Shown here piece after piece: positions 45,397-55,684 of a stretch of DNA of 64,000 nucleotides. Within the stretch, counting starts at the first letter, position 1. Each line of letters opens with the position of its first letter. Origin of the DNA: Myxococcota bacterium (GTDB taxonomy: Bacteria; Myxococcota_A; UBA796; UBA2385); the NCBI GenBank assembly GCA_023150805.1, contig JAKLKF010000012.1:1-64000 (forward strand), read 5' to 3'. The notes under the pieces were generated by a model. The model saw nothing but the letters and a program-made list of their open reading frames with translations. It did not search any database and was not told the origin of the DNA. The position numbers were made by a program, and so were the translations under genes.

Positions 45397-45666
45397 TCAC
45401 CGCCGCCGGGGTCCGCGCTCCCGTCCCATGCCGAAGTCGTAGCCCGGGTAGGCCCGCCACATGCACCGGCCGCGCTCGTCGCGGAAGGTGAAGCCGGCGA
45501 TGCGCCCGCAGGGGTCGACGATCACCCGCACCTGGCCATCCTGCGTGGTCTGGCGCGCGGCGTAGGCCGTGGCGTGCGGGGTGGCGGGCACGAACTGCAC
45601 GGAGGCGACGGTGTCGCTCTGTTCAGCGACCACTTCGCTGGCGACGCTGTCGTGGGGACCGTGCAT
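45397..45666 (-). CDS. Small protein of unknown function (89 aa) at the end of the radical SAM operon
   Basis: MHGPHDSVASEVVAEQSDTVASVQFVPATPHATAYAARQTTQDGQVRVIVDPCGRIAGFTFRDERGRCMWRAYPGYDFGMGRERGPRRR; ATG at 45666. Confidence 0.5.
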   Translation of the reverse strand: MHGPHDSVASEVVAEQSDTVASVQFVPATPHATAYAARQTTQDGQVRVIVDPCGRIAGFTFRDERGRCMWRAYPGYDFGMGRERGPRRR

Positions 45667-45829
45667 CGTCCGCTCCTCGGCCTGCCGGGATGGTACCTCG
45701 CGGTGCACCGTGGAACGGTGAAATCGCGTGAAGGGGGCCCAAAGGACTCGCAAGGTCTTGGGATCGTTCCCGGTTGCCCGCGGTCGGGCGACGGGCCGCC
45801 AGGGCCGGTCGCGGCGCGCCGCCGGGGCC

Positions 45830-46948
45830 TCAGCGCACGGGGCTGAAGCCCCGGTCTCCCCAGATGTCCAGGTAGCCCTTCCAGACCCCCTCGCAGCCGT
45901 CCCGCAGCCGGCAGTCGGCGCAGGCCGCGGGCTGGCCCTTGAGGTCCCGCTTCTTGCGGTCCTGCCAGTTGAAGCGCGCGCGCTGCTCGGCCGCGTCGAA
46001 CTGCACGACGGTGCTGGGGTACTGCTTGCCCCGCCCCTCGCCCGGCGGCACCTTGCCCGGCGGAATGACGTCCCCTCCGCCGCTGCGGATCGAGCAGGCC
46101 GTCGAGAGGTCCCGGTACTCGCCCATGTAGCGGCGCAGCAGGGCCTCGCTGCCGCGGAGCGCGGGCGGCAGGACGCACATCGGGAAGCCGCCGAAGGTGA
46201 AGGTGCGGCGGAAGTGGTGCTCGTTGAGCAGGATGGCCTTCACCAGCAGCGGGACGACCTGCTCGTAGCGGGGGGTGAGCTCGGCGTCGCCCTCGGCGTA
46301 GCCCTCAGCCCGGATGAAGTTCACCCGCAGGTCGGACAGGCCCAGGTCCCGGTAGAAGAACTGCATCATCTTCGGCAGGGCCGCGGCGTTCCAGCCGTTG
46401 AGCACGATGTTGACGGACAGGCCGTCGGGCAGGTGCCCCTGGGCTTGCTGCTTGTGCCGCAGGTAGCGCAGGGCCTCGACCTTCTTGTCGAAGTTGCCGG
46501 GCACCCGGGTCAGGCGGTCCTCGAGCGCGGCCGTGTGCCCGTGCATCGAGACCGTGACGCGCGTCAGGCCCGCGTCCAGCAGGCGGTCGGTGAAGTGCGG
46601 AAGCCGCAGCTTGGTCGCGTTGGTCGCGATGGCGACGCGGGTGAAGCCGAGCTTGCGGGCGTAGGCGACGCTGTCGACGATCCGCGGGTAGGTGGTGGGC
46701 TCGCCGCCGAGGAAGCCCACGCTGCGGTAGCCGTCGGCGTAGAAGCGCTCGAGCTCGGCCTGCATCTGCTCGAAGCGCATGTAGCTGCGGTCTTCCTGCT
46801 TGGGCAGGCCGTCGATGCAGAAGACGCAGCGGTTGTTGCACGCCTTGCCGATGTTGATCTCGACGTTGCGGCGCGCGTCGCGATCCGGGTTCCAGGGCTG
46901 GTTGCCCGGGGTCGGCTGCGGCAGGCTGGGGGCGGCGGTGGGCTGCAC
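45830..46948 (-). CDS. Radical SAM protein (Hxs-associated paralogue)
   Basis: CNNRCVFC; GFLGGEPTTYP; VSMHGHTAALEDRLTRVPGNF; C-terminal CADCRLRDGCEG. Confidence 0.9.
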   Translation of the reverse strand: MQPTAAPSLPQPTPGNQPWNPDRDARRNVEINIGKACNNRCVFCIDGLPKQEDRSYMRFEQMQAELERFYADGYRSVGFLGGEPTTYPRIVDSVAYARKLGFTRVAIATNATKLRLPHFTDRLLDAGLTRVTVSMHGHTAALEDRLTRVPGNFDKKVEALRYLRHKQQAQGHLPDGLSVNIVLNGWNAAALPKMMQFFYRDLGLSDLRVNFIRAEGYAEGDAELTPRYEQVVPLLVKAILLNEHHFRRTFTFGGFPMCVLPPALRGSEALLRRYMGEYRDLSTACSIRSGGGDVIPPGKVPPGEGRGKQYPSTVVQFDAAEQRARFNWQDRKKRDLKGQPAACADCRLRDGCEGVWKGYLDIWGDRGFSPVR

Positions 46949-54542: not shown

Positions 54543-54646
54543 CGCCGGCTCCGGGAACTCGGACTCGGAGCCTACAGGAACCCGGAGGGGTCCGCAAGCG
54601 CCGCGTCAAGATCACCAAGCGTCGCAGGGGCCCGGGGGCGACCACC

Positions 54647-55684
54647 TCAAAGCGCGCGTTCGAGGGCCGCGGTCCGGCGCTCCAAGGACGGCTGCTCGGT
54701 CGGGCTGCGCCGCCCCCGCCGCGCCTGGATCCGCTCGAGCAGCGCCGGCTCGGGGTCGCGGCCGAGCACCGCGCGCACCACGGGCAGCGGGTCCTCGAAG
54801 ACCGGCGACAGCTCGCGCTCGTCGAAGGTCCGCGCCATGCTGAACATCCCCGCGCAGACCGGGTCCCACCGGCAGGCGTCGCAGGCCCGCCCCTTGCCGT
54901 GGAGGAACTCGAGCTGGTGCACGAAGCCCTTGCCGTCGAGGAAGCGGATGCAGCGCTCCTCCTCCTTGACGATCTTGCGCGTCTCGGTGCTGGCCCAGGC
55001 GAAGCGGCGCATGAAGCACAGGGGCACGCGCTCGGCCCGGAAGGTGCGTCCCGTGCGGTGCAGGTACTCCATCGCCAGCTCCAGGCTCACCATGAACTCG
55101 TGGTGGCGCGGCACGCAGTCGGGGTTGTCCTCCGCCCGGTTCCCGTCCGGGTCCATGTTGTTCCACACGAAGTGCCGGATGAAGGGGAAGCGGTCGCAGA
55201 GCCACATCACGGTCTCGTGGAGGTGGTCGGCGTTGTAGGCGCAGATCACGGTGTTGATGTCGGCGGTGATCCCGACCTCGGGCACGTGGCCCAGGCACTG
55301 CACCAGGGTCTCCCAGGCGCGCGGGTACTGCGTGATCCAGTCGTGCACCTCTCGCCGGTGGGAGTGCAGCGAGACGTGGACGTGCTGCAGGCCCGCGGCG
55401 ACGCACTCGCGGAAGAAGCCCAGGTCGGCCAGCCGCTGGCCGTTGGTGATCATGCGGTTGTACAGCCCCCGCTGCGTGGCGTACTCCAGGGCCGGGAAGA
55501 GCAGCGGGGACAGCGTCGGCTCCCCCCCCGTCAAGATGATGCCGTCGTAGCCGAGCTCCACCAGCCCATCGACGTGCTCCCGGAGCTCCTGCTCGGTCAG
55601 GTCCACCCCCGTCGGCGGGTTGCTGCAGAAGCGGCACCGCTGCAGGCAGTTGCGGGTGAGCTGGAGGTAGCCGAGGTTCGCCAT
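54647..55684 (-). CDS. Radical SAM protein (Hxs-associated paralogue, CxxxCxxCSNPP)
   Basis: YLQLTRNCLQRCRFCSNPPTG; IILTGGEPTLSP; VSLHSHRREVHDWITQYPRAW; C-terminal CDACRWDPVCAG. Confidence 0.9.
   Translation of the reverse strand: MANLGYLQLTRNCLQRCRFCSNPPTGVDLTEQELREHVDGLVELGYDGIILTGGEPTLSPLLFPALEYATQRGLYNRMITNGQRLADLGFFRECVAAGLQHVHVSLHSHRREVHDWITQYPRAWETLVQCLGHVPEVGITADINTVICAYNADHLHETVMWLCDRFPFIRHFVWNNMDPDGNRAEDNPDCVPRHHEFMVSLELAMEYLHRTGRTFRAERVPLCFMRRFAWASTETRKIVKEEERCIRFLDGKGFVHQLEFLHGKGRACDACRWDPVCAGMFSMARTFDERELSPVFEDPLPVVRAVLGRDPEPALLERIQARRGRRSPTEQPSLERRTAALERAL

What the first reader, a model, noticed from the sequence alone, without database searches (positions are those of the whole stretch)
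45397..55684. Expanded His-Xaa-Ser-type radical SAM peptide-modification operon
Seen directly: a run of minus-strand genes with overlapping or near-abutting ends (52221, 51676/51673, 51210/51194, 50947, 49433/49423, 49097/49091, 48015/48010, 46985/46948). They encode, in order, an Ig-repeat lipoprotein, a Tat-signal protein, an HxsD-like protein, a small 87-aa protein, an HxsB-like radical SAM enzyme, a (SHG)15 precursor, and three more radical SAM enzymes; another radical SAM gene (54647-55684) lies just upstream. Established: NCBI/TIGRFAM annotates a genome-context-defined His-Xaa-Ser system (HxsA repeat protein, HxsB and HxsC radical SAM maturases, HxsD); to my knowledge its chemistry and function are not characterised. 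Inference: this is an Hxs variant with extra maturases and surface/export partners, so the product may be a cell-surface or secreted modified His/Ser/Gly peptide.
Basis: partly seen in the sequence, partly recalled or inferred. Interest (0 to 1): 0.95.

Follow-up and report, generated by a model that had tools for sequence, protein, structure and literature searches.

The report
Six-enzyme Ser-His-Gly peptide maturation locus
This myxobacterium-like genome carries a conserved gene set that makes a tiny protein ending in many Ser-His-Gly repeats, probably rewires it chemically with up to six radical enzymes, and apparently sends it out of the cell folded, through the Tat pathway; what the product is and does is still unknown.

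Summary
Curated models confirm HxsB, HxsD, a second HxsD-like protein (the "87-aa protein") and an HxsA4-type precursor ending HC(SHG)15QW. Radical SAM genes R1-R4 are present, and a sixth, R5 (60414-62270), lies beyond the reported interval. R2-R5 are HxsC-like paralogues, all below the HxsC/HxsC4 cut-offs.

The cassette recurs across the host class. HxsB, R4 and R5 almost always occur together (R4, and R5, each in 64 of 68 HxsB genomes). Named relatives are Myxococcota/Deltaproteobacteria MAGs.

Three results are new here:
1. The repeat is fixed at protein level: in 986 units spelled 51 ways, Ser never changes, His once, and Gly only to Ala (14 times).
2. A Tat-signal partner is conserved phylum-wide and complements the precursor. 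Genomes without it mostly have precursors with an export-like segment of their own (21/28 versus 1/64), some with true RR motifs.
3. The peptide's end tracks the enzymes: QW precursors sit beside R1-R3 and SW ones do not, even within one genome.

Best reading: a new Hxs variant making a modified (Ser-His-Gly)n RiPP exported by Tat in cis or in trans. His-Gly-Ser cyclophanes are the leading but untested chemistry. Function unknown; metal binding or a surface polymer is most likely.

The parts
60414..62270 (-). R5, sixth radical SAM gene (618 aa), HxsC-like, two conserved auxiliary cysteine sets; outside the interval of the finding
   Evidence: Radical_SAM PF04055 72 bits; HxsC4 90.7 and HxsC 81.3 bits, below cut-off; 11 of 11 cysteines of the triad and two sets conserved in 21 orthologues; co-occurs with HxsB in 64/68 genomes
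54647..55684 (-). R4, radical SAM gene (345 aa), HxsC-like
   Evidence: HxsC 89.9 bits, cut-off 267.9; present in 64/68 HxsB genomes and 1/83 others
52221..54542 (-). Ig-repeat lipoprotein (773 aa); accessory, present in part of the cassettes
   Evidence: Big_7 and related Ig domains; found beside only some homologous cassettes
51673..52221 (-). Tat-signal partner protein (182 aa), MDSRRKVLQQIGLG...
   Evidence: 158 homologues; RR at 90% or more of 52 sequences; remote homologues with SRRxF motifs next to Hxs genes; no PDB fold match
51194..51676 (-). HxsD (160 aa) with a conserved C-terminal extension
   Evidence: TIGR03976 55.5 bits, cut-off 50; model of alpha/beta type, weak Rpb11-like matches
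50947..51210 (-). HxsD-like protein (87 aa)
   Evidence: NF038315 54.3 bits, cut-off 41
49433..50947 (-). HxsB radical SAM maturase (504 aa)
   Evidence: TIGR03978 503 bits, cut-off 370; eight conserved cysteines
49091..49423 (-). HxsA4-type precursor (110 aa): leader 49241-49423, core HC(SHG)15QW 49094-49240
   Evidence: NF038313 82.8 bits, cut-off 55; 18-bp array; core conservation
48015..49097 (-). R1, PapB-like radical SAM gene (360 aa), only the three radical-SAM cysteines
   Evidence: PF04055 50.6 bits; PapB model 89 bits, cut-off 340; cysteines; linked to QW-type precursors
46985..48010 (-). R2, radical SAM gene (341 aa), HxsC4-like
   Evidence: HxsC4 89.1 bits, cut-off 500; paralogue of R3-R5
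45830..46948 (-). R3, radical SAM gene (372 aa), HxsC4-like
   Evidence: HxsC4 133 bits, cut-off 500; paralogue of R2, R4, R5
45397..45753 (-). Small ORF (118 aa) after R3, conserved only in near relatives; role uncertain
   Evidence: No family match; homologue in L009 and L010 only

Best explanation
A His-Xaa-Ser (Hxs) RiPP system of an expanded type. Shown from sequence: an HxsA4-type precursor with a recognition-like leader (LPxxxKxxxxFLxxE) and a (Ser-His-Gly)n core; HxsB; two HxsD-family proteins; four HxsC-like radical SAM paralogues (R2-R5); a PapB-like radical SAM enzyme without auxiliary-cluster cysteines (R1); and a Tat-signal partner protein. Inferred steps: (1) the two HxsD-family proteins and the leader bring the precursor to HxsB and the R enzymes in the cytoplasm; (2) HxsB with R4 and R5, the set shared across the phylum, modify the repeat units, most likely joining His(i) to Ser(i+2) in each His-Gly-Ser (three-residue imidazole-Cbeta cyclophane); (3) in QW-type loci such as this one, R1-R3 add a modification linked to the C-terminal Gln-Trp; (4) the rigid product leaves by Tat, here hitch-hiking on the partner protein, in other lineages by a Tat-like segment in the precursor itself; (5) outside the cytoplasm it acts as a His-rich metal-binding or structural peptide polymer. 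The confidence given is for an Hxs-variant RiPP whose product is exported by Tat; I put the cyclophane chemistry at about 0.35 and the metal-binding or structural role at about 0.3.
For: Family scores over cut-off for HxsB, HxsD, HxsD-like and HxsA4. Same gene order in about 40 loci of the class. Co-occurrence in 151 genomes: R4 in 64/68 HxsB genomes versus 1/83, R5 64 versus 2, precursor 55 versus 1, Tat partner 55 versus 2. Protein-level fixation of Ser and His in 986 units with 51 spellings. Tat motif conserved in the partner, partner duplicated together with the precursor in two genomes, cis/trans complementarity 21/28 versus 1/64, TatC present in the genome. QW/SW segregation with R1, including three genomes with both types. 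His(i)-residue(i+2) cyclophanes and a Phe-Ser cyclophane are known rSAM products (PMC11002830).
Against: No chemistry, transcript or export was measured. Associations are not corrected for shared ancestry, and the uncharged-run measure was chosen after looking at the sequences. Seven of 28 partner-negative precursors also lack a segment; these may be missed partners. The rSAM proteins other than HxsB miss the HxsC/HxsC4 cut-offs, and triceptide-maturase models fit poorly. The partner has no recognisable fold, and nothing shows that it binds the peptide.
Confidence: 0.6

Rival explanations
1. An Hxs-type RiPP in which the radical enzymes install something other than a His-Ser cyclophane, for example Ser oxidation, epimerisation, or backbone or Gly-alpha-carbon bonds as in bicyclostreptin; export as above or by another route.
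For: rSAM enzymes do all of these; bicyclostreptin uses Ser, His and Gly atoms (PMC11002830). Gly is replaced only by Ala. Six enzymes with different cysteine sets suggest several chemistries.
Against: The bicyclostreptin Ser(i)-His(i+3) spacing does not occur in (SHG)n. Gly is the most variable position, so bonds at Gly alpha-carbons in every unit are less likely.
Confidence: 0.4
2. The repeat protein is an unmodified or lightly modified His-rich metal chaperone or buffer, and the rSAM enzymes act on the leader, the C-terminal Trp or the Tat partner instead.
For: One fixed Ser and His per unit would suit metal coordination. Trp is the last residue of every precursor with a complete regular end, and the preceding residue tracks R1-R3.
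Against: HxsB, R4 and R5 occur with precursors of both cap types over the phylum. Ser is not needed for a simple His-rich buffer, yet never changes.
Confidence: 0.15
3. A redox-cofactor peptide: the C-terminal Trp, perhaps with the Cys at the start of the core, is turned into a quinone-type cofactor and delivered by Tat to a periplasmic enzyme.
For: Terminal Trp; rSAM enzymes and Tat export are typical of cofactor proteins (general knowledge).
Against: The Cys is missing in some precursors (HA in L183/L191, HM in L026, HG in L164), and no dehydrogenase subunit recurs in the cassette.
Confidence: 0.05
4. The SHG tract is a repeat-expansion artefact or a collagen-like linker, with the neighbouring rSAM genes serving other targets.
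For: Tandem DNA repeat; the Pfam collagen model scores 34.1 bits against a cut-off of 27.2.
Against: 51 synonymous 9-mers with almost no amino-acid change; Gly is the position that varies. Linkage and co-occurrence with HxsB.
Confidence: 0.02

Closest known systems
His-Xaa-Ser system HxsABCD (NCBIfam TIGR03976-TIGR03979; Haft and Basu, as cited in PMC9062424)
   Same: HxsB and HxsD over cut-off; a precursor with His-Xaa-Ser repeats; HxsC-like second-class rSAM enzymes
   Different: HxsA model not met (16 bits, cut-off 122); four HxsC-like paralogues below the HxsC cut-off; plus R1, a second HxsD-like protein and a Tat-signal partner
HxsA4 / HxsC4 / HxsD-like families (NF038313, NF038332, NF038315)
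   Same: Precursor and HxsD-like protein over cut-off; R2, R3 and R5 match HxsC4 best
   Different: HxsC4 cut-off (500 bits) not reached by any (best 133); homologues labelled HxsA4 (Omnitrophota, Elusimicrobiales) have mixed repeats, and the Omnitrophota ones read (P0158, P0163) carry a hydrophobic segment in the precursor
Triceptide maturases (HaaB, YhhB, ScaB, MscB; PMC11002830)
   Same: Would work alike if His(i)-Ser(i+2) bonds are made; SPASM-type peptide maturases
   Different: Sequence models far below cut-off; no chemistry shown here
Bicyclostreptin (HghB/HghC; PMC11002830)
   Same: Two rSAM enzymes acting on Ser, His and Gly of a small precursor
   Different: Ser(i)-His(i+3) spacing is absent from (SHG)n; no repeat precursor
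Tat hitch-hiker complexes (PaoABC, PMC4273604)
   Same: One partner bears the twin-arginine signal for cargo without a signal
   Different: Cargo here would be a RiPP, and in other lineages the precursor carries its own signal-like segment

Membership tests
His-Xaa-Ser (Hxs) system | HxsB maturase (TIGR03978) | tested here: met
   503 bits, cut-off 370
His-Xaa-Ser (Hxs) system | HxsD (TIGR03976) | tested here: met
   55.5 bits, cut-off 50
His-Xaa-Ser (Hxs) system | HxsC maturase (TIGR03977) | tested here: not met
   Best is R4 with 89.9 bits, cut-off 267.9; four HxsC-like paralogues instead. So filed as a variant, not as a standard HxsABCD system
His-Xaa-Ser (Hxs) system | HxsA repeat protein (TIGR03979) | tested here: not met
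   16.2 bits, cut-off 121.65; HxsA4 instead
Type-4 Hxs families | HxsA4 precursor (NF038313) | tested here: met
   82.8 bits, cut-off 55
Type-4 Hxs families | HxsC4 (NF038332) | tested here: not met
   Best is R3 with 133 bits, cut-off 500
Type-4 Hxs families | HxsD-like protein (NF038315) | tested here: met
   54.3 bits, cut-off 41
Triceptide cyclophane maturases | Match to a cyclophane-maturase model | tested here: not met
   HxsB: YhhB model 46.9 of 445 bits, GrrM/OscB 45.1 of 310; R1: FxsB 34.7 of 370
Triceptide cyclophane maturases | Aromatic residue joined to residue i+2 | not testable with these tools
   Spacing His-Gly-Ser is present in every unit; the bond needs MS/NMR
Tat substrate (partner protein) | N-terminal twin-arginine motif followed by an uncharged stretch | tested here: met
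   SRRKVLQQIGLG; RR in 90% or more of 52 homologues; remote homologues SRRxF
Tat substrate (partner protein) | Tat-dependent export, and carriage of the modified peptide | not testable with these tools
   Indirect only: cis/trans pattern and co-duplication; TatC present

The most novel reading that the evidence does not exclude
A phylum-wide family of RiPPs exported folded through the Tat pathway, with the signal in cis or in trans. The product is a near-homopolymeric (Ser-His-Gly)n peptide cross-linked at every unit by an HxsB/HxsC-like enzyme set, with a C-terminal Gln-Trp cap processed by three extra rSAM enzymes: a new kind of His-rich exported biopolymer.
Probability: 0.3. Interest if true: 0.92.

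Novelty: new variant of a known kind. Interest (0 to 1): 0.76.

Why it matters
Hxs systems have been annotated by genome context without, in the literature searchable here, any known chemistry or function. This lineage gives an unusually clean test case: a core reduced to one repeated tripeptide, a minimal shared enzyme set (HxsB, R4, R5, two HxsD-family proteins), an add-on set (R1-R3) tied to one residue of the peptide, and a specific export hypothesis. I found no report of a Tat-exported RiPP in the searched library (one unrelated hit); if confirmed it would add an export route for cross-linked peptides and a genetically encoded, variable-length His-rich polymer.

Tried and rejected
Collagen-like structural peptide: rejected because Gly is the most variable position. 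Repeat-slippage artefact: rejected because 51 synonymous 9-mers and all Ser, His and Gly codons are used. An invariant Cys at the core start: my first counts were conditioned on it by the search pattern; an unconditioned scan shows HA, HM and HG variants, so it is not invariant. The AstE/AspA-like gene (62332-63303) as leader peptidase: its homologue was not found beside other cassettes. The Ig-repeat lipoprotein as a core part: absent from many cassettes. Fold of the Tat partner: no PDB match. HxsD fold: only weak Rpb11/ferredoxin-like matches, so peptide recognition by an HxsD/HxsD-like pair stays a guess. Kyte-Doolittle hydrophobicity of leaders separated the two groups poorly (overlapping ranges); the uncharged-run measure used later is better but was chosen after seeing the sequences, and the single partner-positive exception was not inspected. 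Literature on Hxs chemistry: none found in the searchable library beyond context annotation; the original Haft and Basu paper is not held.

Full report
OBSERVATION. The minus-strand cluster at 45397-55684 is as described. The genes overlap or nearly touch, and the precursor ends HC(SHG)15QW (for the repeat array). Against curated models, 49433-50947 is HxsB (503 bits, cut-off 370), 51194-51676 is HxsD (55.5, cut-off 50), 50947-51210 is an HxsD-like protein (54.3, cut-off 41) and 49091-49423 is HxsA4 (82.8, cut-off 55). The other rSAM proteins match HxsC/HxsC4 (R2, R3, R4) or PapB-like models (R1), all below cut-off.

LARGER THAN REPORTED. A sixth rSAM gene, R5 (60414-62270), lies upstream of R4 beyond the divergent Ig-repeat gene. 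R5 and R4 travel with the cassette in related genomes. R2, R3, R4 and R5 are recognisable paralogues (BLASTP E about 1e-11 to 1e-26), whereas HxsB and R1 are distant. Conserved cysteines differ: HxsB has the radical-SAM triad plus five, R1 the triad only, R2 plus four, R3 and R4 plus five, R5 plus eight in two sets ending CxxCx5C. If cysteine sets reflect auxiliary clusters, the enzymes are not redundant.

CONSERVATION. Named relatives from genome contigs are Deltaproteobacteria, Oligoflexia, Myxococcota and Polyangiaceae MAGs. The order R5-R4-[IgLP]-TAT-HxsD-HxsD-like-HxsB-A4-R1-R2-R3 recurs over the window's family, order and class; in family f2 the R5-R4 pair lies after R3. In 151 genomes (own plus relatives), HxsB is in 68. 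R4 is in 64 of those and 1 of the other 83; R5 in 64 and 2; the precursor over cut-off in 55 and 1; the Tat partner in 55 and 2; R1 in 40 and 2. Fisher p-values (1e-16 to 1e-36) ignore shared ancestry. In a wider draw from the phylum, 120 of 401 genomes have a precursor over cut-off.

THE CORE. In 986 units from about 55 genomes there are 51 different 9-mers, using all Ser, His and Gly codons, yet Ser never changes, His changes once (to Gln) and Gly 14 times, always to Ala. Those counts came from a pattern that starts at HCSH. An unconditioned scan found 105 distinct tracts, 98 of them directly preceded by HC; HA, HM and HG variants exist. All 98 tracts with a regular end stop in Trp, 38 as QW and 60 as SW; the remaining ones are cut by contig ends, except L188, which runs off-pattern. 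The unit is therefore held at protein level, with Ser and His the constrained side chains. Leaders diverge but share an LPxxxKxxxxFLxxE-like motif in 84 of 86.

EXPORT. The 182-aa partner begins MDSRRKVLQQIGLG, and both arginines are present in 90% or more of 52 homologues. Remote homologues in other families begin SRRDFIALVG, SRREFLTLLG, NRRSFVGALG, SRRSFIQKTS and so on, and most of the twelve fetched lie beside HxsD, HxsD-like, HxsB, R4, other rSAM or precursor genes. In G019 and G024 the partner gene is duplicated together with the precursor. Where the partner is not found, 21 of 28 precursors carry an uncharged segment of 15 residues or more, usually just after EEGK[I/V]TR, against 1 of 64 where it is found. 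Some are textbook Tat motifs: VTRRNFLSKTGWAVLAASG (L102), VTRRDFVETSASLLLLG (L168), and CRRDFIARSSVAALVAAVGG in P0191. Omnitrophota HxsA4 proteins have a similar segment at the same place. The genome has TatC. I read this as Tat export with the signal in cis or in trans; the PaoABC hitch-hiker is precedent for the in-trans form (PMC4273604). That the partner physically carries the peptide is inference.

CAP RESIDUE AND R1-R3. Loci with HxsB and a precursor ending QW have R1 next door in 39 cases and not in 7. Most of the 7 are contig ends or broken assemblies; G006 is an exception as far as it is assembled. Loci ending SW have R1 in 0 of 10. G179, G207 and G239 carry both types at separate loci, with R1-R3 only beside the QW one. 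R1-R3 probably act on, or need, the Gln-Trp end.

CHEMISTRY. No experiment exists in the searched literature. Known rSAM enzymes join C2 of His to Cbeta of residue i+2 (HaaB, YhhB, ScaB) and C4 of Phe to Cbeta of Ser (MscB) (PMC11002830). Each His-Gly-Ser here has that spacing, which makes a repeated His-Ser cyclophane the leading guess (about 0.35). Enzyme-family similarity does not add support: all cyclophane-maturase models are far below cut-off. Among solved structures HxsB is nearest CteB (5wgg), R1 SkfB and R4 PqqE, by sequence.

FUNCTION. A Ser/His/Gly peptide outside the cytoplasm suggests metal capture or a structural or surface polymer; nothing here discriminates between them.

VERDICT. 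A real, widespread and larger-than-reported system: a new variant of the Hxs kind. What is added here is the sixth enzyme, protein-level fixation of the repeat, the Tat cis/trans pattern and the QW/SW enzyme subtypes.

Noticed in passing
G000:C166:6930-8471 (locus L023): A second HxsB in the same genome (454 bits), flanked by two divergent rSAM genes (L023 5623-6954 and 8482-9381) and near a very large polyketide/PUFA-synthase-like gene; no SHG precursor seen beside it.
   Followed up: partly
55769-60361 (+): Divergent Ig-repeat protein (1530 aa) whose C-terminal region resembles that of the Ig lipoprotein at 52221-54542 (both end ...CQHYEL.I.NG.W).
   Followed up: no
62332-63303 (-): AstE/AspA-type hydrolase gene just upstream of R5; homologue not seen beside other cassettes.
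   Followed up: partly
44093-45369 (+): Tad/VWA-like pilus protein that appears split over two reading frames (44093-44812 and 44833-45369): frameshift or sequencing error.
   Followed up: no
41927-43486 (+): Sulfatase-like lipoprotein gene, from reading the ORF only.
   Followed up: no
L183 and L191 (G179, G291): QW-type precursors whose core starts HASHASHG, with no Cys, showing that the Cys is dispensable.
   Followed up: partly
G122:C27 (locus L026): Precursor (HM start, SW end) beside a Tat partner on a 2.8-kb contig in a genome with no HxsB detected; possible contamination or a cassette without HxsB.
   Followed up: no
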